Below are positions 8,047-63,856 of a stretch of 64,000 bases of DNA, in pieces; the first letter of the stretch is position 1; the number at the start of each line of letters is the position of its first letter. A program made the translations under genes and the position numbers. Location: positions 439,001-503,000 of the forward strand of contig JAFCMP010000357.1 of NCBI GenBank assembly GCA_017506865.1, written 5' to 3'. This DNA is from Tribonema minus. Lineage: Eukaryota > Sar > Xanthophyceae > Tribonematales > Tribonemataceae. A model generated the notes under the pieces. It searched no databases. It worked only from the letters and a program-made list of their open reading frames with translations, and was not told the DNA's origin.

Positions 8047-8468
8047 TCAATGGACGCCAGCTGCCGGTGCCGGTGCCGCTGGTGGTGCTGCGGCCGCCGC
8101 CCCCCCCTCGCCCCCCACTGCCCCCAGCACGTCCGCAACGGCCTGCGCATCCGCCGCCATCGCGCGCTTTTCTTGCGACCCCTGCATGCTATTTGTCCCC
8201 CCTCTCGGCTCCCCTGTGGACCCCTCGCGCGCCCTAGCGAGCATCCCCGCCACGTCCTGCGAGACCCGCCGCGAGCCGGGGTTCGACTCGCTGGGGGGAG
8301 GCTCCTCCAGCGCCTCCAGGGTGGTGATGAGCAGCGCCTTTTCGTCGCGGAACTGCTCGTCGTCCTTGTCGTTGTGGAAGTTCTCGAGGTACGTGATGAG
8401 CTTGGCGCGGTTGGCCACCAGTATGCGTGTGATCTCGGGGGGCTTCTTGGGGTTGGCCACAAAGACCT

Positions 8469-8499
<31 letters not shown>

Positions 8500-9635
8500 C
8501 GGGGGTCGCAGCGAAAGAAGGGGGGGGTGGGTGGGTCAGCATATAGCCTCAGTGAGTGGCTATTGATGGGTGAGGATTCAGAATTCACACAAAAAATGGG
8601 TGCCTGACCACGGGCAAGAGCCTTTTTTAACAACCCACTGCTGCAATGCTATCATGAGGTCATGGCTGAATCTGTCCGTTCCACTTCAAAGCACATAATA
8701 AATCATGCACAATTTGCACATCAATAATGTGACATCGTAGCTGTCGACAGAAGGGGCTGTTTAACCAATGATGTACGAACCACGTGTTGCCATCAAAGCA
8801 CGCCAGAGAGATTTAAACAGAAGAGAAGAGCAACTGGGCATCCGACGCTGGGCCTAACCATTGAGATGCCAGCCTCCGGAGAGCACACTGGTTTTCAACT
8901 TTAATTGTGGCAGATGACAGCCAACAAAGGAGTGTCGCCAATGTGTAGACTATGTCATTAGTCACATATAAGTACATGATTCTTATGCTGGCGCTAGTTT
9001 TTCCGCTCCCGTTGGACCTCTCCACCGCATCTCTGGTGATTCGAGGCACAAGACCATGCATGGCGAGCACGCTGTGGTAGACAGTAGGCATGCCCCTCGT
9101 GCGCAGTGCACATGGGCTAGCACTAGCAACCGACTGGGTTTTTGAAGCTCGTGTTTGAACTTGTTGTCCGCCAGCGCACAAAGTGCACAGCAGCGCTACA
9201 GCAGCTGGGGTGGAGTTACAGCAGGTCAGCATTGTCGCCTCCATCAATCAGAACAGCACTTCACAAATCTGTTCTTTTTAGAGTAGTCTAAGCGGGCCCG
9301 TTGCAGCCTGGCTCACTCGGGTGATCCATGCAAAGTGTGATTGTTCGATAGCTTCGTTTTGAGCATTGCTGCTGCATCTGATCACGAGAAACCCCTCATT
9401 GGTTGATACCACCAACACTCAGGATGCCTGTGTAGGATAATGATGATGACGCTCAGAAAATGATCATATCACTGCAACAGCGCAAGGTACCGCCAGGGGC
9501 GCTCGTCAGCGCCACATGCAACGAGCATTGCGAATTCAATACACGGATTGTATTCTTTTTAAGTACATGGAGCGTCACGCAGCAGACGTCGAGCTGGTCG
9601 AACACCGCAGCGACGGTTTATACACAAAAAACACA

Positions 9636-9670
<35 letters not shown>

Positions 9671-12600
9671 TGAAGACGTGGAAGGCCTCGTACTGTATGT
9701 TGGGCGACTTGTCGCGCAGCAGCATCATCATCTTCTTCAGGTTGTCGCGGTTGCAGATGTAGCGCATCATGACGGCAAAGTTGCTCCTGTCCAGCAGCAG
9801 CTCGCCCAGGAGCTTGAGAGACTGCCGCCGCGTCACGTAGTTCTCGCTGTCCAGCAGGATGGTGTACTTGGAGAATACGGTGTCAAACCTGCACAGATAC
9901 AGGTGCCGCAGGATTCGTTCGAAAGCGTGTGAGGCACTAGCGGGCAGTATTATTGGTTGATTATTGTTGTGGCGTACCAGATCTTAGCGCTGTGTAGGTC
10001 AACTGTCAGTGGGGGCGCGCAACAAAGTGTTCACTGTCGAGCAGGATGGTGTACTTGGATCACACAGTGTAAGTCAAACCTATACGGCGCACGCATCCCG
10101 CATCCATTTGTTTCCCCAAAATCAGCGACGAGCACGTGATGAAGTCGCATTCGTGTTGGCGCATAGGTTCTGAACACTGTGTGATGTGCCTGTCAGTAGA
10201 TAATATCAAGTGTAGAGTAGCTAGGCAACGCACCACATGACCCATGAGCAGGAGGAGTGTCTTGCTTGAACGCAAACCTGCATGCCCGCATGCAGCGCGC
10301 ATGCAACACGCCGACTGTATTGTGGTCATTTGTGAGGTCCTGGCTCGTGTTCCGTGGATGCTTATGTAAGGCAACCTCGCATTCAATTCAACGTACCGCT
10401 GAAGCTGACCAAGTACCTGTGCTCACAGCATGAATTTCTGGTACTTCTATTCGACATCATTTTTTCCCACCCCGCTATTGCAGGAAGCTGTGACATGTTA
10501 CCTCAAGCATCACGAAGGCAGACATGACAATTTCATGAATGGGCATGTGCACCCAGGCCCATCACACGTCAAAGATGATGTCGCCGGCAGCAATTGCGCA
10601 TCCTCTCCCTCGTAAGAAGCCTTTACTATGTCTTTGAGTACAGCTTCACATGATGCGCCGCTTCACTGCACGTAACGCTTGATTGCTTGCATTCGCGCCC
10701 AGCAACTTCAAGAGAGCACCGGAGCCTGTTGCACACGCCTACCTTCAATACTAACAAAACCTCTCCGTGAAAGGAATTTCAAACTTAAACTTGCCATCCT
10801 CAAGCAGTGACGCACCTCTCCGACAGGAACTCGCTGGCCGCCGCCTTGTTGCGCGTGAGCAGGTCGCGCAGCGTGGCAAAGGCGTCGCTCGCGACGTCGA
10901 AGTTGGGCAGGTGGACGTAACTGTCAAAGAACAGCCACAGCATGTCGTCCGCCAGCGTCGCGCGCGCGAGGCTTTCGTAGCGGATGCATTCGCGCAGCAT
11001 CGAGCCGCACAGGATGGCAATGTCGGGGTTGCCGTAGGCGAGGATCTGGTTGGGGGGGGGGGGGGAGCGAAGGGAGGCGGTGTGCAGGGGGGGGGGGGGT
11101 TGAGCACTGTGCATGGAATGCGGTGCTCACGCTGAAGAACTGCAAGAGAGTGAAGCGCGGTAGTTCAATTATTGCTTTATGCAATGCTCAGCACTGCAAG
11201 AAAGCAGCGTTCAGTGGTGGAGGAGGCGTATTGAGCCCACGGCTGGAGCAACTTCAAGTGACTTTGCAGCATTCACATCAGTTGTCGTGATCAGGTACTC
11301 TACGGACCGTACGCGCAGAGCATACTAGCAGAGTGTACTCTAGAACTGTCAAAGCAGTTTCTTGTCTGACTACCTTGTGGTGAATGTGCAAAGGGCCACA
11401 CACAGGTTGTGTCCGTGTCCGTGCTATGCTTGTATTGGCACAGTCGCACTTCAAATATCATGCACCATATTGTGACCATTTCTGATGCATCGTGTACTGC
11501 GTATGCAAGCCCGCACAGCGTCACGCACTGTACGATACACAGATCAGGAGAGAAATGGAGTATGTATGGAGAAATAGAAAATCCAATATGCTGAGATCAA
11601 CCATACAGCTGGCACATGAGGAACGTGTGTAGCATCAAGCATGAAGTTAAAGTGAAACTTCCCTTCCAAAAGCACAGGTTACCAACACAGGCAATTGATT
11701 CGACAGTGGCAGTGACAGGGCACTGTGCGGCTACGCGTAGTGTCGCTCCACGCGTATAACAATAGCCAGCACAGCACTGCACAGCTGAGTTTGGCTGCGG
11801 GGAAAGCGCCTGCCAGCATGCATGGATGGAGCGCCGCGGGCTGTGATTCCAGTGCGACAGTAGAGCCGCATTTGCTGAACAGCAACGTTCAGCGGCAATC
11901 AAACCAAGCGATGAGCAATGCAATCTACGACCCCACTCTGCTCATTGACCTATCCATCCGCGCTGCGCAGATGCAATGTTGAAGTATGTGATATCCAGCC
12001 CTCAGTTGCACCTAAAGATTCAGAATGCTAATGAGTGGTTGCATTGGTATCAAAAAGTCACAGGCACAGCAGCTGATTGCAACACTTCTCTATCGACAGC
12101 TGTCAGGCTGCACCTGTTGTGCTCGGGTGTGCAGGGTTGCCTCGGTAGCACAGTTGACACCATTCTTGCACAGCAGTGCTTTGACGTTTGCTGGAGCTTA
12201 AAAAGATCACCTACCTTTGATGAAATTATATCCAACTGCTCTTCACAACAAGCCAGTGCCATCAAGGATTCCAGCCAACTGTGTTGGTACATGACAAAAG
12301 TCGAAACTCAAGACACACTCACCAGATCCTTCACCATGGTGGGGTTCTCCGCAACATAGTCCGCGAAGCCCTCGTGGTTCTTGCGCACGAGGTTGTTGAA
12401 CACCTGTGCCACATCCTTTCTGGCCTCAAAAGGCAGCACAGGCATTGCCTCAATCAGCTGGGGCATCAACCCAGCCCCCCTCAGCGCAGCGCTGAGCTCC
12501 TTGCACTTCGCCTCCACGGGCTCCTTATCCTCCTCCCCATAGAGCACCTCCTTCATCGCCACCAGGCGCTTGCTAAGGCTCGCCGCGTTGCCCTCAGCCA

Positions 12601-12682: not shown

Positions 12683-12947
12683 TTCAGGCTAACGCGGCAG
12701 AGTAGCACTAGAGCGCGCCAGACACACGAGCTCTCGCTCACCTACTACTAGTACTGAGAGTGCTTGCGCGTCCGAGCAGATCACTTGCGTTTTGCAGAGT
12801 TGTCGTACATATACGTGCGTACGCGGGGGGGCAGTGCTCATGACTTTTTGATTGTGTGTCTTACAGCATCACCAAGAAAGCAAGACTGGTGTGCGTAATC
12901 ATCATGATATAAATGATAAGCTGTACATGTACAGCCGCAAGAGAACC
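12683..12947. other. Short gap between Mo25 start and the upstream minus-strand gene
   Basis: About 265 bp that should hold the Mo25 promoter and 5' UTR plus the 3' end of the next minus-strand gene. No motif I can name. Confidence 0.4.
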
Positions 12948-14466: not shown

Positions 14467-14511
<45 letters not shown>

Positions 14512-16838: not shown

Positions 16839-16866
16839 ACAAGACAGACAGACAGACAGACAGACA
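16839..16866. repeat. (CAGA)n microsatellite
   Basis: About six to seven CAGA units in a row just before a larger tandem duplication. Confidence 0.85.
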
Positions 16867-16890
16867 ACAACGCACAATGCCAATCTGCGC

Positions 16891-17156
16891 ATAGCTGCGA
16901 TGAGCGTGTCGTTACCATGCGTGAGCCCCCTCTCCCCCCCCCCTCCCCCAAACACCCCGGAACTAGGCAAGCTGCGACCACGATGCGCACCGCTACCTCT
17001 TTGCATGGCTGGCGACTAGGAGATAGCTGCGCTGAGCGTGTCGTTACCATGCGTGAGCCCCCTCTCCCCCCCCCTTTTCCCCAAACACCCCGGAACTAGG
17101 CAAGCTGCGACCACGATGCGCACCGCTACCTCTTTGCATGGCTTGCGACTAGGAGA
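16891..17156. repeat. 132-bp tandem duplication, two copies
   Basis: Copies begin at 16891 and 17023 (ATAGCTGCG/C, then TGAGCGTGTCGTTACCATG) and run through GGCGACTAGGAGAT. Nearly identical apart from C-run length and single changes, so recent. No coding function visible. Confidence 0.9.
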
Positions 17157-17981
17157 TCAACTATTGCCTTGACAAGGGGGAAAAAACACTCTACAAGGCT
17201 ACGAAGCTGGTCCGGAAGCACGTAGCGTACACGAAAGAGTGAAACCTTTTCTGCCTCGCTTCCCGCGCGTGCGCACGCGTGCAGTGCTGCTGCTGCCGCG
17301 CCTGGCCGCCAGCGGATAAAGCGCCGGGGCCCGAAAAAAAAAGAGGTGTGTACTGAGAACTGAACGAGAGGGAGGCTTGATGGGGGGGGCGCAGCGCACA
17401 GCGCCCGCCAAGAGGCGCAGGTGATCCGCTTCGCCGCCCATCATGCACAACACACACATCACACCTCGACCACCACTGCGCGCTTAGATAGCCGCGTATG
17501 CGAAGAGTCACCCATCCCCCCCCCCCCCCCCCCCCCCCCCCCGGCACTGTCTGGCGCCGCGGCAGCGCTATGCCCGCTTGTCCCCCCCCCCGCTTCCCTC
17601 CTGACTGCTTGTCCCGTGTGGATGAGGACCACCTCACTGAGGCGGCAGGCAGTGCCACACCCTGAAACACACACACCATCCCCCCCCCCCGCCCCCCGCC
17701 CCCCCCCAGTACCCCCTCGCTCAGCCCCCCCACCGCGCAGCCCCCCCCCCCCTAACAAAACAGGGGGATGACTAGTAGGATACAACCAGACCAGCTTCCT
17801 AAGCGGCGCGTTCGCAGCGTGGTCTTGCATGGCAGATAAGCGTTGAGTCTCTCCGAGCCGAGGCTGCATGGCGCCGCCGCACTCTATGTGCGCATGCCCC
17901 CCCTTCCCCCGAACACCCCCTCCTCCCCTCCTTCCTCCCCCTGCTCCTGGGGGGCGCGCCCTGGCGAAAATGGGGGGCTCA

Positions 17982-25753: not shown

Positions 25754-28700
25754 ATGGTGAGTCTTGCGTGGCTCAAAGCTTCTGCGTCTGTTCCACTACT
25801 CGACTTTGTGCGTGGCGGCTTCGGCAATAATTCAAATTCTTGAAGTTGCCAGTCCACCGATCGAGGGTCCCCTTCATTGCCAACCAGGTCCTGTTGACCC
25901 GGCTTAGAGTGGGCGTCAGCAATCCGCTGGAGTTGTTGAATCATCTCACAAGTTGCCTCGGTAGTCTCGGTGTGTTCCCTGTGTTTTCTTCAGCTGTTGA
26001 AGTGCCATTCTCTACTGTCCAAGTGGCCCAGTTTGTTCAGACCAAAGAGTGATCAGCTACAGTGCTTCTCGGCTTCCTTTTGTCACACTTACTTTTTGCT
26101 GAGTTGAAAAGGTGTGGTGAGATTGCTAGCCTAGATTGTACGAGGTCATCACAAACTCAACCAGCAGAAGCACTACAATTGTACGTCGACGATGTTGCTG
26201 TGTGCTGACGACCTGCGCTGGTGGGCCATGCTGTTGTCACCAGACAAGGGGACCAAAAAAGCACCTGAAGCGCTTGAATGCGCCCAAGCACTGGCTACTC
26301 GGCAAGCTCGAGGGCATCTGGGCACCCAAGCCATCTTGTGGTATGTGGCTGCTTCCATTTTCATGTAACCTGCTTGCACGAGCATTTCGGCATGCCTTCA
26401 CCCCACTCTCCCCCCCCCCCCCCCCTTCACACACACATGCAAGCATACCCCCTGCGCCCGTGGAGCAGGGGCTTGTCTGGTCATCACCACTTGTGCAGCC
26501 ACTGCACTTGCCAACACAACTACTTCTACATAGTTTCATGCAGCCCATCATGGGTGATGTTGACGAGGGCACCTGTAACCTGAGCTCGGCATGATGTTGA
26601 TAAGGCTGGATGTCTTGTGCCTGCACAGTAGTAGCATACGGTAGCGTCGGAAGCACCAGCCATGCGTATACATACCTGCGTCGCGCTGTCAGGCTCAGCT
26701 TATGTGGCAGGCCGTTCATGTGTACATTGTCGCACTGTCACTTCTTTGCATGGTCATGATGCCTCAATCCAGTGCGATTTGAAGGGTGACTCCCGCTGTT
26801 CTCATCACACAGAAACTACGTTCATCACCTTTTTTGTCCATGTGGCAAAATGGCACGATGGACGTATTGCTTGAGTAGATGCTGCTGCGTGGATGCGTCA
26901 CATATGTTGCGGCTCTGACTCTTGATTAGCAATGATGAGGAATGGGTGAGATTCCTCGCACCTTCCTCGCCATCTGTCTTGTGCGCTTGCAAGTGTCAAA
27001 AACATTCAAGGAATTGCTGAAGCACTGACTGCTGCTGACGTCATGGCGCCTTTTCTCCGCTATTCCTCGCTATGCCAGGCCCTCACAATGCCAGGGAGTG
27101 CTTGCCGCTGATCATCATCGTGCGCAACCGCTTGAAGTACGCGCTGACCAAGGCGGAAGCCAACATGATCTGCATGCAGAAGCACGTCAAGGTGGACGGC
27201 AAGGTCCGCACTGACCTCAACTTCCCCGCAGGCTTCATGGGTGAGTGCCATTAGCTGACACATTGCCGTACGCTGCTAATAAGGCTGGCTTTGTGGTGAC
27301 TGCAGCTGCACCAGGCTCTGTGAACCGCGAGCAGACCCTATAGCAGTGCATGCTGAACGGTGGAGTGCACTCCTGGCTTCAACTTGCAGGTGTCACATGT
27401 CGTCTGCAAAGTATGTTTCACTGCACATTGGTCAATAATTCACCTGGCCTGTCCCTATCTACTGCAGTCTTTCACCCCATGCATCAGCGCGCAAATGCAT
27501 TTACATTGTTTGACGTTCAGTGAAGCGTTTTCTGGTGTTGAAGTTACACAAGTCAACTTCTCTTTTCAGTGTACTCCAGGCGCTACTTGTCCCACATCAG
27601 AGGTGATGCATGGTGGCTCAGCCGTCATGTAGAGCAGTGCACCTCTTCTGCTTGTTGAACAGCGAAGTCACCAAATGCCTTCCTGATTTGTTGCGAAATG
27701 AACGCGCAACAAGAGAGCACACTGGACTTCAGCCCACCATAGTCTTCCTGACCCATGCACCACTTTTTGACTTGTTGTACGTATATGTTCCCCCTCTCCA
27801 CCGCACTCATGCCTCCATGCCACTGCAGACGTCATCTCCATCGAGAAGTCCGCGGACCAGTTCCGCCTGCTGTACTGCTGCAGCAGCGCTCTCCGCAATG
27901 CTCAAGCCATACCTACATACCTATGCATGTGTTTGTGCAGACGTCGTCTCCATCGAGAAGTCCGCGGACCACTTCCGGCTGCTGTACTGCTGCAGCAGCG
28001 CTTGCTGCAATGCTCAACCCATACCTACCTACCTACACCGTGCGCGCGCGCAGACGTCATCTCCATTGAGAAGTCTGCGGACCAATTCCGGCTGCTGTAC
28101 AACACCAAGGGGCGCTTTGTGCTGCACCGCGTGAAGGACGACGAGGCCAAGTACAAGCTGTGCCGCGTGCAGAAGGTCGAGGTCTCCAAGAAGAAGATCC
28201 CGTATTTGGTCACGCACGACGGGCGCACCATCCGCTACCCAGACCCCCTGGTGAAGGCATGTTTGTGTATTCTTGAAGTAACTGCGCACGTAGTACAAGG
28301 TATGCATGGTGCAGGCATTGTGCTGCGCGATCTGAACAAAAGATCTTATCATTTACGTAGTCCGTTGATGGTTTTCTCTTCCTGTTTTCTTCTAACCCTA
28401 ACCCTAACCCTCGGCACGTCAAGAGCACGCCAAGCTGTGTGGAAGAGGTTTGGAGTCAGGTGCAGGTGTTCAGTTGACTGCATTGCAAAGAGAAGCATGA
28501 CAAGTACCGGTGGAAGCTATGTGGGAGTTGCAAGAAAGGATCTATGAATCCAACAAGTGCACCTGGGGCGTGCATCAGAAATGGACCATCTGCCACCTAC
28601 TAGCAAACTGGGTTCGTGCGACCGAGTGTGCTGGTGAAGCAAGTCGCAAAAAGGCCCATATATTTGCCTCGGTGAAGGTATACATACAAGCTGCGAATTT

Positions 28701-47700: not shown

Positions 47701-50700
47701 AGGCACATGTGCTTGGTGCCTGGTGGTGCGGGCGGCTTGAATATGCATGAAATTGCGGGCAGGCACACACACACAGCATCAAACCTTGTTGTCAACGGCA
47801 ACACGTGTCTGTTGCAGAGTGCGTTTTTGGACACTTTGTGGTGAAACGCCTGAGAGCCGGTCTAGACTGGGCATCTGCAACTTCAAGAAGCGATAACAAT
47901 GAGCACTCTGAACCTTGGATGAGTTACAAATACTCATGCCCAGTTGGTGTTTGGCCTCTGTTCTTGTGACGTGCAGTTCTACGACTTGGCAGCAAGCCTC
48001 AAGTGGATGAACCTGTGGTGGGATGCGTCAGCCCTGGTGCCAGATGGCAGGTGTGTACCCCAAGTGTGACTTGTCATGTATGTAACTTCAAACTATGGGA
48101 ACCGAGACTGAGGTGACATTGACACGGCTACATAGTATACTGACCCAGCTGGTGCATCTTGCTGTGTGAAGGGTTCAGTGCGGTTGCAGTTTCACCTTGC
48201 CTGTCTGCGCCTCCTTGCTTTTTATAACTGGTGGGCTTGCACATTGCATATATGGTCCTTGTTAGTAACCGGTGGGCTTGCGCAATAGGCTCCTCCTTGC
48301 TCTTTGATTACCGGTGGGCCTGCGCAATAGGTGCACACACTCAAGGACCTCATCGCCTTGCAGTTGTGCTTACCTTGAACGTGCCACCACACGCGCGCTT
48401 GCTCCACTGCATGGATCGCGCATTTGAACAGATGGTGCATGTAACTTCAACGCAACGGAGATACTCTAGATATACCCCCCAGCGCTCTGCATCATTCCAT
48501 CTGCACCACAGGCAATGCAAGCGCCATGCATCACGCCTGCACCTCAGTGCTTTAGTACAGACCATCAGCAAGCTTGACACCGTGCTGCCGCCGTGCAGTT
48601 GTTGTATCGCGGCCGGCGCGTCCTCGCGCTGCACAACTTCAACCCCAATCTTCAGCATCAGTGAATCTGCCCGCCTATTTTGTTGCAGCTGCGTCGCGGA
48701 AGACCAGACGGGCGTTGGCGGCCCGACCTTTGTGGGCAACACGATACTGGTCTTTGGCATCACAACGCTTATGATCCTGATCCACCTCCTTGGGGTGTCT
48801 GTGGTGGAGGCCTACTGGCTGGCCAAGGACAAGGCGCGTCACCTGCAGACGGGAGCGCTGCAGACGGGAGCGCCCGCCTTCAACTCGCAGGCGGTGAGTG
48901 GGTGCAGGAGTGATCGGTGCAGGGCCCAACTGCGTGCAGTCTGCAATAAACGAATGTTGTTTTCTCTTGGACTTTCTCTCACGTTTGATTCTGCTGATGT
49001 GTTCACTTGCAGGCCAAGATGTTTGTTCATGGCAATCTGACAGTGTCCATGTTGTGAGCTGCAGGTTCTGGCCGCCACTACCTGCTGTCATTTGGCAGGT
49101 CAACCACCTCGCAAATCGGGTTCTTGTGTTTCTGGAGCATTGATCAGCCATGCGAATGTGGACACAATACTCGTGCCGACTAACGCCACTTGCCGTCCCA
49201 TGCGACCTTACCGTTATTGGCGTTGTCATCGCGCTCTTCAAGCGTGGCCACCCCGCAGATGAGCGTTCACTACTCCAACCTTCAACTACACGCCAGGCAA
49301 TATGCTGCAATGCGTGTGGCTGCCTCAGCTTTACAGCTGATGTACTGCCGCACTGCACCAAGCAGCTACAGCAACCGCACTCCCCCCCCAAAGTCACCTA
49401 CCTTACACTGCTGCTCCCTGACTTATTTGTGTCTTATTTGCGTTGTGTGCAGATGCGGCAAGCATCAACTACTGCGCCCATGGCGGAGGCGCTGTCGCCA
49501 GGGCCTACGTCCCCCGGGCCGCCATCGTACAGCGAGCCCGTTTCGCCCGCCGCCATTGTGCACATCGGCACCGCGCGTAAGGTAACTGAGCAATGCTGTA
49601 GAGGTTGCTAGCACGTGTCGCGTGTCGTGAGAAGTGTCGTAAGCAGGCCCAAGAATATTTGATGATGAGGTGCATTTGACGGCACAGCTACAGGAGAGCA
49701 CCCACGTGTCACGGTCGCTCATGCAGGTGCGCCGGTAGACGACAGTGCGCCGGTAGACGACAGTGCTGCTGTCGTCAACACTCATTGTAGCTGCTGATAG
49801 TGTATATGTGCAGCGGTAATGACACGACTGCTTCTGGCCCGGTGAGCCTGCCTCCCATGCATGCACGAATCAGTTCACCGAACCGCCCGTTGGTCGGTTA
49901 CGACTTTGTTGGGGCTTGCGCCGTGTTCTGCGTCCCAGCAAGCGCTTGCGCTTAGTAGCTGAACGTCAGCGCTTAGCTCTCCGTGGCCACATCATCCTTG
50001 TAAAATTGCCCCTTCAGTTGTTCAACTTGCACAAAGGCCTGGTGCCTTTGTTGGACTCATGGGCGCGCAGCACGCGCGCAACACACTCACGAAGTCGCTT
50101 TGCCAGTCAACTCCAGATGAAGTTACACCACTGACACTTCTGCCCCTCCCTTATGGTCGGTGAAAGTCACATTCAGAGTGCAGTCACACCACTGGCACTT
50201 CTGACCCTCGCTTGCGGTCTCGCCGCTGCAGGTCCTCGACCCGTCCTTCCTGCAGCCGGTGGACCACGTGCGCTGAAAGTCAACTTCAAAGTGAAGTTAC
50301 ACTACTGACGCTCCCAACCCTCCCGTGCGGTCTCGCCGCCGCAGGTCTTTGACCCATCCTTCATGCAGCCGGCGGACCACGTGCGCAAGCGCTCCAACTC
50401 GCTGTGGCTCCACTTCCCGCACGTCGAGCTCATCTTCCTGCTGTTTGCCTACGAGGGCGCGGTGGGAGCGGAGGCCTCCATGCTCACGAGCCCCTGCCGC
50501 TCACTTGTGGTGGCTTCCGTGGTGCTGTTGGTGCTGTACCCGATCCTGCTGCTCCTGCTGGCCATCCGCGTCATTCAGGTGTTTACATGTACATGCTTAG
50601 GTACTGGGTGAAGAATGTATGAAGTATGTGTGTGCCTCATTGTAGACTCTGGTATGAAGTATGTGTGGACTCTGGGAGGCACACTTAGGGTTGAGGTGGG

Positions 50701-53635
50701 TCTAAAATAGGGCTACCCTGGGCGAGGGTTGCTCCTGCGTCAATCCGGCGCGTGTTGTAAGTTGTTGTTTCTTGACATCTTGACACGAGCTCAAGTTCAT
50801 AGACTACATTGTCATGGTTGTCTTGCGTCCTGCGCGGAAAACGCTCGAATGCAAGAAATCTGCAATGTGTACCTCATGCGCAGGGACGCTCCCGCCACGA
50901 GACCCAACTATGAACCCCCACACGTACTCACTCACCCGTTCACTCACGACTCACTCACCCGCCCCCCCCCTGCGCCCCTCCCACCAGGCGCTGCGCGTCG
51001 GCACGGCGGTCTACGTAGCGCACCACAACCATGGCGCCCCCCCCCCGAGCACCCCCCCCTCTCTCAGGTCCTGCTGCAAAATCGCCGTCGCACTTTTTGT
51101 GGCATTCGCCAAGGCGGTCTGGAGCGCTCTGCGCGAGGCGTGGCTCACTGGCGAGAGCATCTTCGTGTCCGCCGATAAGGGGCACTGGCAGGTGCCGGAT
51201 GGCGTGGATGATGACAGGGAGAGGCTGGAGAGGGAGAGCTTCATCATAGGGTACGAGCCCGTGTTCAGGGACTTCAGCGCCAACGGGACGTATTACATCA
51301 TCGTCGTGCTGCTGCGGCTCATGGGCACGGCGCTGGTGAGCGAGCTGAGCGCTGACATTGGTGTTGAAGTTGAAGTCGTTGCGAACTTTGTGGTTTCACG
51401 AGGCTGTCGAGACGATGTTGCGTGCGCAACGTCACTGGCTGAGCTGTTGTACGCTTGGGCTGACCATGTGTGGAGCATACGCACTTGCCCACAGTGTATT
51501 TGCAAAGTGGTGATCGTGTAAATTGCGGTGGATGCTACAGAGGATGCTACAGAGTTGTGGCCTGTCAGCGATTGCGATTATACTCTGCACTCCAGTGAAG
51601 GCTGACCATCCTGGTGTGTTCTGCACAACCAACCTCGCCATGTCATTGTTGTGATGCCACTGAAGCGGGCATGTCGTGCACCAAAGCATACCGTACCTAC
51701 ATACTCTTCCAGCAGCTAAAACACGCCCTCTCGACGCCCCCATAAAGATTGCGGTGCTGGTGTCGGATGGCGCCCTTGCCATTGCATACCTACACAAATC
51801 ATCTGATATAAACACATATTCACATCTCTCACTCATCTACGCATGCTCCCCCCCTTGCAGATTGCGGTGCTGGTGTCGGACGGCGCTCTCTCCAGTGCCA
51901 TCCTGTGCTTCCTGTACCTGACCAACCTGCTGGTGCTGCTGGTGTGGCGGCCCTTCAGCAACTCATTCTTGCAGTTTGCTGAGGGCGTGACGCTCCTCAT
52001 CAACTTCGCGTGCCTAGTCATCACGTGGGTCGCCGCCGTGAAGGCCAAATACGACACCACGCTCAGCGACGTGCTTTACGGCACCTTCATGGCGCTGCAA
52101 GTTTTCAACCTCGTGGTGGTCATAGGTGAGCCGCGCCGGCAGTTTCAGCTGACGCTGTATGTATGTAGTCTATGTGTGTGTGAGGAGCTCACATTAGTGC
52201 TGATCTGGCAGAGGAATCGAGAATGGTACCACACCTGCATGTGCCAGTACTGTCATGGATACATCGGCACAGTAGGGTTATGCGTGATGCCTTGTTGGTT
52301 GCTGCTTCAACACACGCGCATCTGACTGTTGTCTGGACCTCTGCAAGCCAGATGAGCACCGCTGACACTGCCACTTTCGTTGCTGCTGCTGCTGCTGCTG
52401 CTGCTGCCGCCGCCACCGCCACCGCTGCTACCATGGTCACTGCAGTGCCCATCTATTTAGACATGATACTGGTCATTGTTGGGCGCGCCAATAACAAGCT
52501 ACGCAAGGACCTCAAGAGGAAGGACAAGAAAGCGCCGCCGCCGCCGCGCGTGCGTGTGAGCGCCAGAGACGTGTGCTACTACACGCGCGTCATGGTCAAA
52601 GAAAACGCCGCCGCCATGTGGCGCAGCTTGCGGCGCGGGGTGCGCTCGACCGATCAGGTGAAGTTTGAAATATTGAAGTTCAATAGTTGAGGTTGTAACT
52701 TGAAAGTTGGCAGATGTAGCTGTCGTTTGCGGCTCAACCTGTGCCAATGGGGTGGCTCCCTCCGACACGCACACCTATGGCGAGCGCTGCTTTTGCGCAG
52801 CCGAGCGGCTGGGTGGACTGTGCCATGGCCTTTGCTCTTCTTTTCAATTCTGGAAGTGGGGTGAGCATGTCTTGACGAGCTTCTGAGCACTGTCACAGGG
52901 CTCTCGCCACCATGCACACAAACACGGCCAAGGCTGGACACTCCCCGATAACTCAGCATATAGAGGGCAGACAGATACCAATGCCGTGGTTTGAATTCGA
53001 CGAGTTTGTCGCACGGCCGGCCACCCTATGCAGCACCTGAAGTATGCAGGGAGCACGATGTCTATTCTTCTTACATTATGTTGGTCCAGTGATCGTCGAG
53101 CTCCACCATTGGTGAGCAAGCTGTTTGTGCAAACAATCCTTTGAACCCTTCCAGCTTGATTATCATGATGCTCAGTCATTACAGGCATTGCGCCACCCCA
53201 TGATTGTTGTCACAAGAGTCGTCGAGTTTCATGCGCTGCCTATTCTGACGTGACACTGCCCCCGCCCCCCTGCCCTAATAACAGCGCTCGTTTCGGCGCA
53301 CAAGGCATCAACACATGTGCACCACTTGACACTGGACAGATCTTGTGAGCTGTTCCTCGGGCGCGCGCGCCTTCCTACTCAGACCTGACGCTGTCCCTGC
53401 CCCAATGACAAGTTGAACTTTCTATGCGGCGCCCAAGTTACCGTGCATCTACGCATGCGCCAGCGCTTGACGCTGGACAATCCTGTCGGCTTTTCCTTGG
53501 TGATGCGTGCAGGCTATCATGCCGCCGCAGCACGGGGTTCTGGCGCCACCCGTCAAGGACACAAGGCTGCCCCGCAAGGGCTCCATGAACAGCTCCAGCA
53601 TCATGTTCAAGCTGCCTCCGCAGAGCCCTATCTAA
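35705..53635 (+). CDS. Secreted-stalk, beta-propeller and multi-pass membrane (channel-like) protein, paralogue 1
   Basis: Twenty-three phase-consistent exons: 35705-35978, 37220-37552, 38167-38220, 38686-38793, 39314-39421, 40029-40163, 40921-41307, 41540-41618, 42131-42298, 43233-43308, 43852-44058, 44400-44642, 45087-45222, 45852-45955, 46994-47380, 47977-48050, 48689-48893, 49453-49581, 50345-50578, 50988-51335, 51861-52125, 52446-52657 and 53513-53635; 1462 aa. Residues 1-26 are a signal peptide, then a Gly/Ser linker. A Pro/Thr stalk (VTDAP and AADTTPAPT repeats) runs to about 430. About 467-880 form SBBP/PQQ-like propeller blades (for example TFVAGASG, VFVAGATWGNM, GADMVVLQLNAHTG, VTRMDAFVQTLDRETG). 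A membrane part follows with about 7-8 helices, including NTILVFGITTLMILIHLLGV, ELIFLLFAYEGAV and SVVLLVLYPILLLLLAI, and then YLTNLLVLLVWRPF. The tail is basic. The membrane part recalls fungal/protist TRP-like proteins; this is unproven. The exon 9 acceptor is the least certain. Confidence 0.8.
37372..37490 (+). repeat. 15-bp coding minisatellite (VTDAP)
   Basis: About eight units of CCAGTTACGGACGCG and variants in exon 2 of paralogue 1, encoding Val-Thr-Asp-Ala-Pro. Synonymous differences between units indicate some age or selection on the peptide. Confidence 0.9.
38611..40163 (+). repeat. Tandemly amplified intron-plus-exon units with telomere-like tracts
   Basis: Three units each contain GAGGTCAT.GCTGTAG, CACGACCA.GCCCC, a CCCTAACCCTA tract, a short spacer, a GACAG or AACAG acceptor and an AADTTPAPT exon. 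The exons start at 38686, 39314 and 40029. A more diverged relative precedes the exon at 38167. TG-rich microsatellites follow each exon. Confidence 0.9.
42299..42585 (+). repeat. 102-bp array at the exon 9 donor of paralogue 1
   Basis: Three units start at 42299, 42401 and 42503 (GTGCGCTGAG, ATGCATTGAG, GTGCGCTGAG), the first being the intron donor itself. Each continues with GTGGCTTA.C..CA..CTTC and ends with GGTGCCA/GTGCCG...GGAGACA. The sequence just before each unit resembles the exon end GATGGCAG. Confidence 0.85.
42668..43204. mobile_element. Candidate MITE-like foldback element with terminal inverted repeats
   Basis: The ends are inverted repeats: CACACCTTAGACGGCGG at the left and its near complement at the right (CCGTCGTCTAAGGTGTG), one mismatch in 17. 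The interior is full of subterminal GACGACGG/CCGTC and GTCGTGCAGACGAC repeats in both orientations. There is no transposase frame, so it would be non-autonomous. I could not identify a clear target-site duplication. It ends 28 bp before the acceptor of exon 10. Confidence 0.5.
48216..48335 (+). repeat. Short imperfect intronic repeats (ACCGGTGGGCTTGCGCAATA)
   Basis: Three spaced copies of ACYGGTGGGCYTGC with associated CTCCTTGCTYTTT lie in intron 16 of paralogue 1. Confidence 0.7.
50232..50386 (+). repeat. 113-bp duplication of the exon 19 acceptor and start (paralogue 1)
   Basis: A copy beginning GTCCTCGACCCGTCC at 50232 and the real exon beginning GTCTTTGACCCATCC at 50345 match at 37 of the first 42 nt, each after GCCGCNGCAG. 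Preceding intron sequence (CTTCTGACCCTC..TTGCGGTCTCGCCG) is also repeated, with a partial third copy near 50126. The copy reads into an in-frame TGA after 14 codons. Confidence 0.93.
51748..51895 (+). repeat. 113-bp duplication of the exon 21 start (paralogue 1)
   Basis: ATTGCGGTGCTGGTGTCGGA occurs at 51748, after CATAAAG, and again at 51861 as the real exon after CCCTTGCAG. Similarity extends about 30 nt. Confidence 0.93.
53250..53512 (+). repeat. Imperfect intronic duplication (about 131-136 bp) before exon 23
   Basis: CTTGACACTGGACAGA...TTCCTCGG at 53334 recurs as CTTGACGCTGGACAA...TTCCTTGG at 53465, and the preceding CTGCCC..GCCC stretch is also repeated. Confidence 0.65.
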
Positions 53636-54496: not shown

Positions 54497-57400
54497 ATGC
54501 TGCTGGCGGCAGTGACCTTGTCGCTGATAGCTGGTGGGATACGGTGTATAGACTGCGTTGAATCCAGCGCAGCGCACCAGCAAAAGGCAGTCGCCTCACG
54601 GCACTTGCATGCTGAGGACACCAAGGCAGTGTATCCATGGCCAGGGCAAGGACACGATTCTCGGCGGCTTTCGGCGTCGTCAGGCGCTGGTGCGGCCTCA
54701 AGTGCTGGGAGTGGCTCAGACGGTGGCCAAGCTAGCAGCGGGGGCGGCGGAGGGAGTAGCAGTGGAGCTCCGCCACCACCCGCATCCAGCAGTGGCGGCG
54801 CCGGGGGCAGTAATAGTGGAGCGCCTCCTGCATCTGGTGGGGGAGGAAGCAGCACTAGTGCAGGTGTGTGCAACTCTGCTTGTTGCGGATTCTGTGCTGC
54901 TACGCAACAAGCGCAGTGGTACGTACAAGTAGCAGCACTGCGTTCATGCGAAAAGTAGTAGCCGCACGAAGTGTGCCCTCGGTTTGCCAGTGAAGGCTGC
55001 TGTGGTAAAGCCTAGTTGGCTATGTCTGTGATGTTGGCTTCGACGATTTCATGACAGACAACGATAGCGGTACTGTAGTCCTGCTTCAGTACCATGCTTG
55101 GGGTGCAAGATCGGGGATAACGTGCGGGCGCAGCTTGTAACAAATCTCATGATACATTACACTCTTGCTGAAACATGAACAGCAGCACGCGTCAACTTTT
55201 GCGCTAGATTGTCCTCACTGAGCAGTGTTACATTGACAGCGAATTGACATGCCGCATGTCTCATCGCTGATGCGCGTCTGGGAGCAGAAAGTCACACTGA
55301 AACATATGGGATTGCGATCATGACTTCAATTGCAAGGGCAATTGTATGGGTGATTGTACTGGTCTGTGTCCTCAGCTGCAGCATGCGCCTAGCATAGCAT
55401 CGTCAGTCACTGCCTGTCCAAAACACTCCATCTCGACAAGGTTGAGACGCACTGTACAACTGATCGCCGACAGGCACATGTGAACACCAAGGCACAAGCG
55501 CTGTTTGTGTGTGGTCAGCATGTTCATTGGCGTTGTATCGAGAGTGGGAGTGGGGGTATGCATTCTGCGGCTGCGCCTATGCTTCCCCCCCCCCCCCCCC
55601 CTCCCTCTCTACACCCCAAGTTCGCACCTAATCTTGACCGAGAAACAGGCATACCGGTTCTCGCTCCACGACTCCTTACGCCCCGTCGTGCTCGGTTGGT
55701 TTCTTTGCTGACACAGGAAATGGCTGGCTACACTCCGCTTCTCACTTGTTAGACTCTGACGCTCTCTTGTCTCCAAAACAGGGCCTGCTTCCTTATTGTC
55801 TACGAAAGCCAACCTTTGTCTCAGCGAGAGTCGTCTGATCGGAAGTTGCGGCGGTGTCCATAACAAACAGGCATGCGTTTCACCCCTGCTCTACTGAAGG
55901 TATCCACCATATTACCTATGTTCTCCGCACTGTTGCGGGTGGCAGCAGCCCTCAACACATGCACCATACGCCATGCTGCTGAGATCTCACACGTACACTG
56001 GCACTGAGACTGTTGTCCTTGCCCAGCATCCACCTTGTGCCCGGTTGGCCCAGCAGCACCAATTGTGCTGCGCTCTCTCACAGCAGTACAGGCTGCGCGC
56101 AAGTACGCAAAAGGCGCTGTCTATCACACAGCTGCAAACTCATTCTCTTTCTGTCATGACTTGTCATTGTTGGTTGCCAAGCAGGCAACAATCCGTCCGG
56201 CAGCAGCCAATCAGATTCCTCATTCTTTTTCTGCCGTGTGTGTCATTTTTGGGTGCCGCCAAGCAGGCAACGCTCAGTCCGGCAGCAGCCAATCAGATGC
56301 CCCGCCGCCTGCTCAACCGGAGGCTCCGCCCCCCACCCCTCCCCCCCCGCCGCCGGCGGACAGCGGGTCTCAGTCCGGAGGCAGCAATGGTGAGAGAGGC
56401 ACTGATACATGTGGGCGGCAGTTTTGCTGCTTCTCTGTGGGATGACGTACCAGTGCGCATCTATGTGTGCGCCTTCGGCAAAGGCCGTCGGATATTTCAG
56501 CGGAGCGACGCATTGGCAATATTAAGTCGCCACTTGTCGCGGCGTGCGCAGCGTTCATCATGCTACAGGTAGTTTTCCAATACCATGTCAGTCCACTTTG
56601 TTTGGGTGTTGGCAGGCTTTTTCAAGAGGCCTGGCAAAAGCGATTGAGTGGCGCTTGCACCGTCATTGGAAACCTCTGTGCAGCTGCCATCGTGTACAGC
56701 AGCTAGTCTTGCCCATTGCTGACCGCTGACCGCTTAATTGCACGTTCTCTGAACGCAGGTGGCTTTCAGTCCAATGGCAGTGATGGCAGTGCAAGCTCTC
56801 AGGCAGGAGCATCCCAATCGTCCGGCGCCAGCTCTCAGTCAGGTGCCACTCAATCCGACGGCGGCAACACTGGAACTTCAACAGCAGGCAGTGACGTGCC
56901 TGCAACACAGGCGCCACCGCCGCCGCCTGAAGAGCCAGCACCAACGGCACCGCCAGCTGAGACGCAACCGCCTGCTGAGGCCACCGCACCCCCTGCTGCT
57001 GTGACCGATGCGCCGCAAGCGACAGATCCGCCGCAGGCAGCAACGCAGCCTCCTGCAGCAGAGACGCAGGCGCCTGTCCCACAGACCGACGCGCCGGTGG
57101 CGGACACTGCGCCGCCTGTGGACACGCAGCCTCCTGCTGAGGCCACAGCACCGGCACAGGGGACTGCCCCCCCCGCTGCTGACACCCTTGCGCCTGATAC
57201 GCCGCCGCCCGCCGCAGAGACGGCTGCGCCGGTAGCCGAGACGGCGCCGCCGGCAGAGACGCAGCCCCCTGCTGATGTCACGGCACCGCCTGCCGACGCG
57301 ACTGACGCTCCGCAAGCGACAGACGCGCCACAACCAGCCACGCCGGCGCCTGACACGCCGCCGCCCGCAACGGAGACCGCCGCACCAGTGCCGGCAACTG

Positions 57401-60400: not shown

Positions 60401-63400
60401 GTTAGGATAACATGCAGTCGTGCTCCCATCAATGAAATAAATGGTGCGCGCATCATGATAATGGTCATATACACAAATTGCCATTGTGATGTCCTGCAGG
60501 GCTGTACACAACAGCGGGCAGTGCGGCACCCAGCGCAACGCACGTGTTCATCGCCGGCACAGCCGGCGGCAACGGAGGGTGAGCAAAAACCATGCTTGTT
60601 GCATTGCTCAACGTGGCTTCAACTTCATCATCTGAGAGTCTCCAAGGTGGTGAAGCTGTACATGTCAGAACACGATGTTTGACCAGGCAGTGGTATGTCA
60701 ATGCTATGTGTCACTGTTTAAGTGCTTGCTCAAGCACAGATTGGGTGGTGCTTGAAATGACAGCAAATGCTTCTTGGCTGCTGGATTGGTGTTGCACGCG
60801 GTTTTGCCTACCCTGGCTCTTGCCATAAGGTTTAAAGGCGTACAAAGGCTGAGCGATTGACGCAGCAATGCTGACTGTCCAGAATTAGCCCCAGTATGTG
60901 CACAAGCATTGGGGACAATAGCAGCAACTTGACATACAGCAACTGAACGAGCGCATGTGGCGTCTTTGGCTTTGTGGTCACTGGCTAGCTGTAGCATGGC
61001 CCCGACCCCTCGTGTCCCCCATTGGTTTTCCTTGAGGCAACATTTTGATGCAAGGCGTTGACTGTGTTTTCGCTGCTTGACCGACGCAGGGTGCGTGAAC
61101 GGCAACTTCAAGTGGCAGTTGGAGCGGGTGACACCGACTTCAGCGTGACATCGCTCGATGCTGCGAGCGGTGCAGTAGTTTGGGCTCAGACATACAAGTC
61201 CATTGACTTCCAGGCGGACATTGCATATAGCACATACACGGCTGGTGGCAGGTGCACACATGCTTGGAACAGTATTCTGGGTTGCAAGCACCTGAATCCT
61301 CTGTGCTAGCATTGTGGACAGTCGTTTGAGCACCGAGCTCTCTGACATCTCACATGTTAATATGATGGCTCATTTTGTGCACCTCTCAAGTATGCTGTTT
61401 GGCGTATGACAGGTGCATAGATGAACCAGTAGCTCTTGAAGAACTTCCTGGGTTGCCAGTTGCGCACGCCCACAAGTGTGGGTGGATGTGGCAAGGCTGC
61501 ATACATGTATACGTTTGGAATGGGTATGAGAGCATGTACGCTTAAGGCCACTATCTTGTCTTGAATGCAACTGCTCTCGCACATCAGTCCATCGACCGCC
61601 ACACAGGTCCAGCACAGTCCGCGTTGTGCAACTCTGATGACCACACACATCACCTGCCTGCCCCCTTTGCAGGGTGCTTGTTGCAGGCGCTACCTGGGGG
61701 GACATGCGCGGCCCAAACCAGGGCGGCGCAGACATGGTGGTGCTGGAGGTGAGCGCTGCCACAATTTGAAGTCAGCACTGCTGCCCCTGCCTGTAGTCAG
61801 CACTGCTGCTTCTGTCTGTACTCTCCGCTGCATCATTGTCCCATTTCCGAAATGTGAGGTATGGCGAGTCAATGGCGCTGGGCATAGAGACGCGTGTGAA
61901 CCATGATGTGACAGAGGCGTATCCTCTATTCATCGCATACCTGGCATCATATCAGGATCGCCATGCATTGCTGTTGTACGTCAGCAGGTACGTCAGCAGC
62001 GTCCAATGACAAATGCCAGGCATAGGGTTTCAGGATGATTCTGCTTGCTGGTATTTTATCACGATGTATCATTGCTCATCGATCGTTGTGCCAACATGTG
62101 TCATCAATCGACAACTACCGCCACGCCATGACTGCTGCTGCTTCGGACGGCACGATCGCAGTGCACAACGTCAAGTTGGCTGCGCGCTCGATGTCTTGTC
62201 ATACGATCACCCACACTCGTTGGAGGATGCACGTTGCAGCGACATGTGTGCTGCTATCAACTTCATAGCTCGCAAATCAGCACGGCTCTTATGCCTCCAG
62301 TGACCACGCGCAACCATGGCCATTGCGCTTCACCCTCTAGAGCACTGCCAGACCCCCCCCCCCCCCCTCACCACACCGTTTTGCGACTGGCGCCGCACCC
62401 CAGCTCCATGCAGCCACTGGCGACATCATCGATGGGTGGCAGGGCGGTGGCGCAGGCGACGACATGGCCTTTGCTGTGAGCGCTGCCACACTGAGCACTG
62501 CTGCAGCGGGGCCGCAATCCATTGTGGGCGGCACTGCCAATGGCGCCGCTTCCGTGGGGAGATACGCGGTGGACGGCGAGAATGTGTGGGCCGCTGTTGG
62601 CGTCGAGGGGGTGAGCTGATTGTTCATTGATATCTTCCAGTAGCACTCGTTGCAGGATGATATGTCATCTGCTCCATGACTCTCAGTAGTACTTATTGCA
62701 GTGTGAAATGTCATGTGCTTCATGACATCAGATGACAAGTTGCTGCAAGGCAGCAACATGGTGCTGACTTCTGACGAGAGCGATGGTGTGTCAGGTGTCG
62801 ATCAATGTCAGATGGCCCGGATGGTTGCTTCAATGTACTGGCATCATATGCTGCCAGGGCAAGAAGTGTGCTGCCCACCGTAGCACTGAAGCCCGGTGCA
62901 CTCGTGACATTTGCTAACAACAATGGCAGCACACGTACGGCTGTCGCGCCAGCACACGAGATCAGCAGACTTTGCCACAGCGCTCAACGCATGTACGCAT
63001 GTATGTGTGTATGGTCGCCTGCCCAATACAACGCAATGATGACACAAACGCGCGCGCGGGCGAATGCGACCCCCCCCCCCCCCCCCCTTAGCCAATACCT
63101 ACATGCCCCCCGCACGCACGCCACAGACAACAGCAACGGTGGCAGTGCACGCCGACAAGGGCACGGGCCTCGTCACCGCGCTCCAGACCACCGCCTCCCC
63201 CGCAGACGCCTACTCTCCCGACACCTCGAACGACGCCCTGGCGCTGCAGCGTCTGAGCCTCGCCACCGGCGCGGTAGCGTGGAGCACTGACTATCCGGGG
63301 GCGGTGGGCGCCGCCATGGCTGCGCGCAGGGGCGGCAGCGTCGTGACGGTGGGGCACGAGGGCGGCAGCGTGCTGGTGCTGTCGCACGCGTACCGCGACG

Positions 63401-63856
63401 GCGCGCTGCAGTGGCGCTTCGCGGCGCGCGCGGGGTGGGCGACGGCGGTTGTGCTGAGCACTGCTGATGGCTATCCCGTTGTCGTGGGGAACACAGAGGT
63501 CACCGGTGAGTGACAGAAACGAACAAGATTTGGCTGTTGTAACAATATTGGTGTTCCATCGTAGCTACATTGCGTTTGACAGCGGTGGTGCAGTATGACG
63601 TCATTTTTTTCTGTCATAGTTTGAGCTGTGGTTGTGTTCAGCTGCGTTGTGCAACCCACCAGCGTGGACTTGATGCTACATTGCGTGACAGCATTGCAAC
63701 TTTGAGCCTCAGGGTGTTTCAGATGCGCACCTGCCTATACTCCTCTGTCTTGCAGAAAATGGGGTGACCAACGTGGATGCCTTTGTGCTGACCTTGGACA
63801 AGGACACTGGCGAGGAGCTCTGCTACTACTCCTTTGGGTCTCCAGCGGATGATATG
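54497..63856 (+). CDS. Secreted-stalk, beta-propeller protein, paralogue 2 (3' end outside the window)
   Basis: Nine exons seen: 54497-54863, 56267-56389, 56759-59884, 60500-60578, 61090-61251, 61673-61748, 62404-62610, 63127-63505 and 63756-63856. The frame remains open at a GTATGT donor, so the gene continues beyond the window; 1540 codons are present. The N-terminus (MLLAAVTLSLIAGG) is a signal peptide, followed by a Ser/Gly linker like that of paralogue 1. The 3.1-kb third exon encodes a Pro/Thr/Ala stalk of about 1040 residues, including a 52-residue repeat. The propeller part aligns blade by blade with paralogue 1 (VLVAGATWGDM, GADMVVLE, LHAATGDIIDGWQGG, VTNVDAFVLTLDKDTG), and homologous exons have the same length: 79/79, 168/162, 76/76, 207/207, 104/101. 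One exon of 379 nt equals two exons of paralogue 1. A membrane module like that of paralogue 1 is expected downstream but is not seen. Confidence 0.82.
56141..56305 (+). repeat. 80-82-bp duplication of the exon 2 acceptor and start (paralogue 2)
   Basis: CATTCT(C/T)TTTCTG...GCCAAGCAG followed by GCAAC...GTCCGGCAGCAGCCAATC AGAT occurs twice, with exon-like parts at 56185 and 56267. The second is the exon that fits the phase. Confidence 0.92.
57150..57960 (+). repeat. 156-bp coding minisatellite (52-aa stalk repeat), about five copies
   Basis: The marker CCGCCGCCCGC recurs at 57205, 57361, 57517, 57673 and 57829, exactly 156 bp apart. Each unit encodes PDTPPPATETAAPVPATAAP, then a stretch ending TDAPQATDAPQPATP. 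The length preserves the frame. Confidence 0.93.
61772..61820 (+). repeat. 24-bp tandem duplication in paralogue 2 intron 6
   Basis: GTCAGCACTGCTGCCCCTGC and GTCAGCACTGCTGCTTCTGT follow one another directly after the exon 6 donor region. Confidence 0.75.
62633..62730 (+). repeat. About 47-bp tandem duplication in paralogue 2 intron 7
   Basis: CAGTAG(C/T)ACT..TTGCAG...ATGTCAT.TGCT.CATGAC occurs twice in succession shortly after the donor of exon 7. Confidence 0.7.

What the first reader, a model, noticed from the sequence alone, without database searches (positions are those of the whole stretch)
8047..63505. Recurrent tandem duplication of splice-acceptor plus exon start, with a favoured 113-bp period
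At five acceptors in four genes (Mo25 exon 3; eS4 exon 4; paralogue 1 exons 19 and 21; paralogue 2 exon 2) a segment spanning the intron end and the first 25-60 nt of the exon is duplicated. The geometry is always the same: the functional exon is the last copy and the decayed copies lie upstream in the intron. In three unrelated exons the spacing is 112-113 bp; the others are 82 and 187. Tandem duplication across an AG|exon junction is a known theoretical route to intron growth or gain, but a repeated, near-constant unit length at acceptors suggests a specific mechanism. Sequences are seen directly; the mechanism is inferred.
Basis: partly seen in the sequence, partly recalled or inferred. Interest (0 to 1): 0.9.

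Follow-up and report, generated by a model that had tools for sequence, protein, structure and literature searches.

The report
Intron ladders of copied exon edges
In this yellow-green alga, introns carry rows of decaying copies of the neighbouring exon's edge, splice site included, on both sides of exons, which suggests that introns here lengthen by repeated short tandem duplications across splice junctions rather than by an acceptor-specific 113-base process.

Summary
All five reported duplications are real, but two readings fail. They are not acceptor-specific: in the 244 kb examined, duplicated edges are 23 acceptors and 17 donors (18:17 outside the window). And 113 bp is not favoured: periods spread over about 90-200 bp, and no edge cluster at 112-113 lies outside the window. 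'Functional copy last' is forced by geometry. What remains is stronger than reported. After dropping coding repeats, 39 of 56 duplication clusters in genes span an exon edge, where random placement plus simulated decay predicts about 26%; a simpler shift test over all junctions was not significant (p = 0.076). Myosin, GSDH-like and kinase genes carry ladders of one to eight edge copies at both ends of exons. A transcript-derived protein joins only the outermost edges at four junctions (283/286 aa). Copies decay roughly like neutral debris. Two eS4 paralogues differ by one unit. Best reading: serial edge-spanning tandem duplication of once-short introns. The genome is probably Tribonema minus.

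The parts
27824..27935 (+). eS4: first (outer) decoy copy of acceptor plus first 47-51 nt of the exon
   Evidence: 92% to decoy 2; 98% over 50 nt to the functional edge of the C17 eS4 paralogue
27936..28049 (+). eS4: second decoy copy
   Evidence: with the functional copy it aligns to the C17 paralogue's two-copy array at 90%
28050..28250 (+). eS4: functional copy and the exon it opens (acceptor at 28053/28054)
   Evidence: gene model; Pfam Ribosomal_S4e
10016..10070 (-). Mo25: decayed copy of the 5' end of the exon, in the upstream intron (spacing 187)
   Evidence: Mo25 by Pfam
9669..9888 (-). Mo25: functional exon whose 5' end was copied
50105..50270 (+). paralogue 1: decoy copy of acceptor plus exon start (50158-50270) and a further partial copy at 50105-50158
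50271..50578 (+). paralogue 1: functional copy (50271-50386) and exon 50345-50578
51737..51785 (+). paralogue 1: decoy copy of acceptor plus exon start (spacing 113)
51850..52156 (+). paralogue 1: functional copy (51850-51898) and exon 51861-52156
56139..56219 (+). paralogue 2: decoy copy of acceptor plus exon start (spacing 80-82)
56219..56389 (+). paralogue 2: functional copy (56219-56301) and exon 56267-56389
   Evidence: counted as 'mixed', not 'edge', because so little exon is included

Best explanation
These are remains of short tandem duplications (unit mostly 90-200 bp) whose breakpoints fall one in an exon and one in the adjoining intron. The extra exon edge and splice site end up inside the intron. 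The outermost original acceptor or donor stays in use, so the protein is unchanged, the intron becomes one unit longer, and the copies decay as neutral sequence. Repetition, plus array expansion, builds ladders from either exon towards the middle of the intron. Edges dominate probably because the introns were short (about 120-250 bp) when hit: a 90-200 bp unit then hardly fits inside the intron, and one wholly inside an exon is not tolerated. Shown: the ladders, the use of both edges, the excess over random placement in the sample, the decay pattern at acceptors, and use of only the outer edges in one transcript-derived protein. Inferred: short ancestral introns, and the molecular origin (end-joining repair of staggered breaks or nicks with fill-in).
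For: Edge clusters 39 of 56 after dropping coding repeats (undropped 46 edge, 18 intron, 8 mixed, 7 exonic, 1 intergenic). Random tolerated placement predicts 21%, and 26% after simulated decay and detection; placement into 200-250 bp introns predicts 75-66%. In L014 and L019, 21 of 23. Myosin mapping shows copies at both ends of exons. The kinase intron L025, picked from the table for its length before any repeat search, has acceptor copies at 203, about 376 and 581 bp and a donor copy at 282 bp. Transcript-derived P0241 agrees with the spliced model at 283 of 286 residues across four junctions, whose eight edges include seven with copies. Decay at acceptors: exon part 1052/1177 identical, intron part 1204/1520; codon-position differences 121/1247, 84/1251, 224/1236 over all edges. 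eS4 has two decoys on C357 and one on the C17 paralogue. Introns with edge copies are longer, median 820 bp (n=34) against 512 bp (n=143).
Against: The circular-shift test over all junctions was weak: 69 of 530 against 57.5 +/- 7.6, p = 0.076; for pairs at least 85% identical 22 against 12.8, p = 0.011, at least 90% 11 against 7.9, p = 0.20; outside four dense records (chosen after seeing their density) 21 of 432 against 28.3, p = 0.93 (that null includes coding-repeat arrays). Exons are mostly from my own gene finder. L014 and L019 supply 21 of 39 edge clusters. Several recent copies (90-97% identical) have a spacer without detectable homology, which a plain contiguous duplication does not predict. 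On the donor side exon parts (580/682) are hardly better kept than intron parts (547/675 at +7 to +60), and acceptor copies keep AG in 32 of 33, slightly more than neutral decay suggests. Copies of one array share history, so these counts are not independent. Intron length is partly circular as evidence. The decay rates in the simulation are my assumptions. No sister genome was available to show an empty site.
Confidence: 0.7

Rival explanations
1. A mechanism acts preferentially at exon edges (for example transcription- or splicing-linked breaks, or breaks at the borders of positioned nucleosomes) and copies the edge locally, whatever the intron length.
For: Edge excess beyond decay-corrected random placement in present-day introns; spacers between near-identical copies; characteristic scale of 90-189 bp (50 events against 5 at 30-89); the same exon edges carry copies in the paralogues L014 and L023, with different periods at two of three.
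Against: Short ancestral introns give the same excess without targeting. Intron-only duplications also exist (17 clusters). At the third shared edge the periods are alike (181 and 179), so that copy may be inherited rather than new.
Confidence: 0.18
2. The copies are functional: alternative or mutually exclusive exon edges, or decoy splice sites kept by selection.
For: AG kept in 32 of 33 acceptor copies that reach 15 nt or more into the intron; third codon positions differ more than first and second. Public T. minus models P0243 and P0246 contain doubled edge peptides.
Against: P0241 uses none of the copies at seven laddered edges. Copies are mostly partial exons, some with stops or indels. 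GT kept in only 14 of 20 donor copies; the codon pattern is near that expected when a neutral copy is compared with a constrained exon.
Confidence: 0.07
3. Insertions of a mobile, introner-like element with long target duplications.
For: Spacers between near-identical copies; introners are reported in diverse eukaryotes (PMC9860276, start of abstract seen in the listing).
Against: Three units tested are locus-specific: 50158-50383 matched only itself, L014:7090-7260 only its own locus, and the eS4 unit only two loci, both eS4. The copied part is the host exon edge.
Confidence: 0.03
4. Assembly artefact or chance.
For: Some contigs look duplicated (C90/C179, C144/C223/C278).
Against: Most copies differ from the functional edge by several to 30 percent; 0 pairs in shuffled sequence; the eS4 array occurs in two paralogues.
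Confidence: 0.01

Closest known systems
Intron gain in a potato RdRp gene by a tandem duplication crossing the intron-exon boundary (PMC4974935; passages seen, abstract among them)
   Same: A tandem duplication covers the 3' end of an intron and the 5' end of the next exon, so splice signals are inherited.
   Different: There it made a new intron and an added exon in one gene. Here existing introns get longer, in several genes, on both sides, repeatedly.
Tandem genomic duplication model of intron gain (AGGT model; review PMC3443670, passages seen)
   Same: Short tandem duplication supplies duplicate splice sites.
   Different: The model duplicates exonic sequence and creates an intron. Here the unit crosses an existing junction and the one transcript-derived protein examined is unchanged.
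[quoted passage not shown] not held; known only from mentions)
   Same: Duplications inside genes interact with intron structure.
   Different: No comparison of edge ladders was possible, because the paper could not be read.
Small tandem duplications from fill-in at double-strand breaks with 3' overhangs (PMC8355091; start of abstract in the listing, passages)
   Same: A general route to homology-independent tandem duplications.
   Different: Shown in mouse and human cells, with breaks having 43-bp overhangs. Nothing here tests the enzymes or break structure in this alga.
Direct repeats near intron splice sites (PMC11782384; abstract seen)
   Same: Direct repeats at intron borders.
   Different: Those are 4-30 bp repeats at or near the two ends of an intron. 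Here longer edge copies lie inside the intron.

Membership tests
[quoted passage not shown]
   Copies lie inside introns bounded by the outer edges; P0241 is uninterrupted across four junctions. Tested by transcript in that gene only
[quoted passage not shown]
   AG kept in 32 of 33 acceptor copies and GT in 14 of 20 donor copies that reach 15 nt into the intron
Boundary-crossing tandem duplication (potato RdRp type) | Unit covers intron end plus exon start | tested here: met
   eS4, 50158 and 56139 arrays and others
Boundary-crossing tandem duplication (potato RdRp type) | Copied exon piece becomes a used exon | tested here: not met
   Not used in P0241 at seven laddered edges; other genes not testable without RNA
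Introners | Similar inserts dispersed at many unrelated intron sites | tested here: not met
   Three units tested, all locus-specific or eS4-specific
Tandem exon duplication / mutually exclusive exons | Whole exons duplicated and spliced in | tested here: inconclusive
   Most copies are partial exons and unused in P0241; a few whole small predicted exons in L013 and L019 stay unresolved
Minisatellite array | Head-to-tail array of near-constant unit | tested here: inconclusive
   Acceptor ladder of the L014 exon at 6849 has steps of mostly 102-114 bp, but many ladders have irregular steps

The most novel reading that the evidence does not exclude
Exon edges themselves are hotspots of local duplication in this alga, through breaks linked to splicing, transcription or nucleosome borders, so that intron growth is driven by a junction-directed process acting at both ends of exons rather than by random duplication filtered by selection.
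Probability: 0.18. Interest if true: 0.85.

Novelty: new variant of a known kind. Interest (0 to 1): 0.6.

Why it matters
How introns become long is usually credited to transposons and small insertions (general knowledge, not from a call). Here introns keep a readable record of growth by duplication across splice junctions, with a unit count that differs between two eS4 paralogues, so the rate, size and fate of such events could be measured directly in one genus. It also warns annotators: the copies look like exons, my own gene finder called several of them, and two public T. minus models contain doubled edge peptides.

Tried and rejected
Green-alga origin: my first guess from genome size and base composition; rejected after a light-harvesting gene (Pfam Chloroa_b-bind; its ochrophyte look is from recall) and eS4 matches to Phaeothamnion and Chrysoparadoxa.

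Acceptor-specific mechanism and a 113-bp period: rejected.

Selection keeping the copies: codon-position and splice-site statistics are near my neutral expectation; AG retention is slightly high and is reported as such.

Intron gain by duplication in a paralogous myosin exon on C457 (L024): an intron splits the exon there, but no repeat was found in it.

Haplotype comparison: some contigs look duplicated, but no matching laddered stretch was found; the 10-kb queries did not list even their own location, so absence there means little.

Rows dropped before counts: L016-L018 (short contigs or contig ends; L016 has 5,000 N) from all gene statistics, seven edge clusters (three in window 37-42 kb, one each in L007, L009, L011, L013) and one intron cluster (L007) as coding repeats or doubtful, plus four edges of L019 pseudo-exons from the acceptor/donor count; eight 'mixed' clusters left out of the edge/intron ratio, two of which (L019) are edges by homology. 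In one search, all L007 and L009 edges and three L011 edges were dropped. In one search, the L025 exons were set by hand.

Displays for 50345, 51861, 56267, 42298 and some L014 edges aligned overlapping pieces and were not used.

Paper searches (10 of 10): in their listings I saw no description of such ladders, but the library is open-access only. Not held: Hellsten 2011, Gao and Lynch 2009, a plant paired-nick paper and the T. minus genome note, the last two asked for under identifiers from recall.

Full report
WHAT WAS CHECKED. The window is G000:C357:439001-503000 of a 158-Mb genome in 554 contigs. Mo25 and eS4 are confirmed by Pfam. A donor-side array was missed, 42288-42593, 102 bp x 3, beginning 11 nt before a predicted donor at 42298.

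ORGANISM. eS4 is closest to a EukProt protein named as a Trinity assembly product (94%), and among named algae to Phaeothamnion and Chrysoparadoxa (78%). A relative of the L014 gene is listed as Tribonema minus on a contig of 155,497 bases, exactly the length of contig C154, which carries a paralogue of that gene. Direct placement of that protein in the genome did not complete. Tribonema minus (Xanthophyceae) is therefore probable, not proven.

SAMPLE. 21 stretches (190.5 kb, L002-L022) were taken by place; three short or gapped ones (L016-L018) were left out. With the window this leaves 19 records and 244 kb. A self-trained gene finder recovered the Mo25 and eS4 exons and gave 319 acceptors and 318 donors. 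It also called some decoy copies as exons, which I removed where homology showed it.

CHANCE AND SYMMETRY. 227 repeat pairs with periods of 20-600 bp were found, against 0 after one dinucleotide shuffle in 500-bp blocks. Copies cover 49 of 319 acceptors and 49 of 318 donors. With exons of 40 nt or more and periods of 30-400 the counts are 34 of 266 and 35 of 264, and a circular-shift null gives 57.5 +/- 7.6 for both together, p = 0.076; with identity of at least 85% it is 22 against 12.8 (p = 0.011), with at least 90% 11 against 7.9 (p = 0.20). Four dense records, chosen after seeing their density (L011, L012, L014, L019), show 48 of 98 against 28.9 expected; the other records show 21 of 432 against 28.3 (p = 0.93). 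This simple test is therefore against a uniform genome-wide excess; its null includes coding-repeat arrays, which raise the expectation.

EDGE EXCESS. A sharper test asks, among tandem duplications tolerated in genes, how many cross one exon edge and how many lie in an intron. Clusters with periods of 50-300: 46 edge, 18 intron-only, 8 mixed, 7 exonic, 1 intergenic. Dropping seven edge and one intron cluster as coding repeats leaves 39 and 17. Random placement in the present gene structure gives 21% edge; simulating neutral decay (rates assumed by me) with the same detection gives 26%. Binomial p is 1.4e-7 even against 35%. L014 plus L019 give 21 of 23, the rest 18 of 33, and the rest without the window 13 of 26 (p = 0.001 against 21%). 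Edges hit: 23 acceptors, 17 donors; outside the window 18 and 17.

REPLICATION. Six later stretches (L025-L030, 43.2 kb; L025 and L026 chosen from the table for a long kinase intron, the others by place) gave 5 edge clusters (one in a coding repeat), 3 intron-only, 4 intergenic and 1 mixed, against 19% edge expected. In L025 the kinase intron carries acceptor copies about 203, 376 and 581 bp upstream and a donor copy 282 bp downstream (the donor one is the 'mixed' cluster). L026 shows none. In L027 a donor ladder of several copies follows the exon ending at 1710.

LADDERS. Mapping relatives of myosin onto L019 places edge copies at 13 of 20 edges of ten exons, by my reading; the donor of the exon ending at 7920 has four copies and the acceptor at 3221 three. 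In L014, 10 of 10 edges of the five exons from 2192 to 8323 have copies; the acceptor at 6849 has eight hits, with steps mostly 102-114 bp. A paralogue, L023, has copies at 3 of 6 edges (311, 1155, 1831); compared with the same edges of L014 the periods differ at two and agree at one (179 and 181), so that one may be inherited.

PERIOD. With exact 16-mer seeds, 119 non-coding events include 10 at 17-29 bp, 5 at 30-89 bp and 50 at 90-189 bp. Edge clusters have a median period of 130 (3 of 39 under 90), intron-only clusters 93 (8 of 17 under 90; Fisher p = 0.0016). No edge cluster outside the window has 112-113. A lower limit for edge units is what one expects if each copy must carry its own complete splice signal; that is inference.

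WHICH COPY IS USED. P0241, named as a Trinity transcript product, equals the L014 exons 995-1162, 2192-2420, 4576-4662, 5435-5568 and 6849-7089 joined, at 283 of 286 residues. Seven of the eight edges at these four junctions carry copies and none is used. After 7089 P0241 reads on into what looks like intron and contains an edge-like peptide at another spacing than in L014, a hint that ladders differ between strains. The eS4 protein P0001 has no extra segment at this junction, but residue for residue it resembles the C17 paralogue more than the window gene, so it speaks for that locus.

DECAY. For 43 edges (25 acceptor, 18 donor; coding repeats dropped), acceptor copies are 1052/1177 identical in the exon part and 1204/1520 in the intron part; donor copies 580/682 and 547/675 (+7 to +60). 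Differences by codon position are 121/1247, 84/1251 and 224/1236. A neutral copy compared with a constrained exon should show about half the divergence in the exon part and third-position differences nearly doubled; the acceptor side fits and the donor side fits less well. AG is kept in 32 of 33 acceptor copies and GT in 14 of 20 donor copies that reach 15 nt into the intron.

UNIT GAIN OR LOSS. The eS4 unit occurs at a second place, C17:429314-429477. That paralogue has one decoy plus the functional edge, where the window has two decoys. Window 27928-28262 aligns with it at 90%; window 27241-27823 shows no alignment to it. The window's outer decoy is 98% identical over 50 nt to the paralogue's functional edge. 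The unit at 50158-50383 and the L014 stretch 7090-7260 matched only their own loci, so these are not dispersed mobile elements.

MECHANISM. The simplest account is tandem duplication with one breakpoint in the exon and one in the intron, tolerated because the outer site stays usable, followed by neutral decay. Placement into introns of 200-250 bp predicts 75-66% edge clusters and 120-150 bp predicts 93-86%, near the observed 70% overall and 21 of 23 in L014 and L019. Introns with edge copies are longer (median 820, n=34, against 512, n=143), though partly by construction. The break type is not tested; fill-in at staggered breaks makes small tandem duplications in mammalian cells (PMC8355091, passages). 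Recent copies with non-homologous spacers suggest either filler at the join or rapid intron turnover.

COMPARISON. A single potato gene shows a tandem duplication across an intron-exon boundary, but there it created an intron (PMC4974935, passages). The classical model duplicates exonic AGGT (PMC3443670, passages). In the listings of ten paper searches I saw no account of ladders at both exon edges; many subscription papers are not held.

Noticed in passing
L014:9560-9742: A dispersed element of about 180 bp: 37 of the 43 matches listed are to this stretch, 76-89% identical, in many contigs. It lies after the exon ending at 9436; possibly a short mobile element.
   Followed up: no
L019:6488-6525: A stretch of about 38 bp at the intron end beside the acceptor of a myosin exon matches many contigs at 93-100%; unexplained.
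   Followed up: no
contigs C90/C179 and C144/C223/C278: Kinase matches with equal or near-equal scores at collinear spacings suggest duplicated or haplotype contigs in the assembly.
   Followed up: no
L024 (C457:797500-798450): A paralogous myosin exon is split by an intron of about 375 bp where L019 and the matched stretches on C401, C312, C79 and C509 are continuous; no repeat marks its origin.
   Followed up: partly
window 38131-40163: Exon-plus-intron units of about 520-715 bp are duplicated; exons encode a 27-nt repeat and introns contain long TG runs.
   Followed up: no
window 3212-3298: A 43-bp unit in two copies (98%), each containing GTAAGT and TTTTTAGG, upstream of the light-harvesting gene whose predicted ATG is at 3484.
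   Followed up: no
window 28392-28411: Telomere-like CTAACC repeats inside an eS4 intron.
   Followed up: no
window 16891-17157: A recent 133-bp tandem duplication (96%) inside a predicted intron, touching no predicted exon.
   Followed up: no
P0243, P0246 (public T. minus proteins): Both contain doubled or tripled edge peptides, so public gene models may include decoy copies as exons.
   Followed up: partly
L025, around 1336 (minus strand): The donor of the first kinase exon may read ACAG|GCAAGT, a possible GC donor.
   Followed up: no
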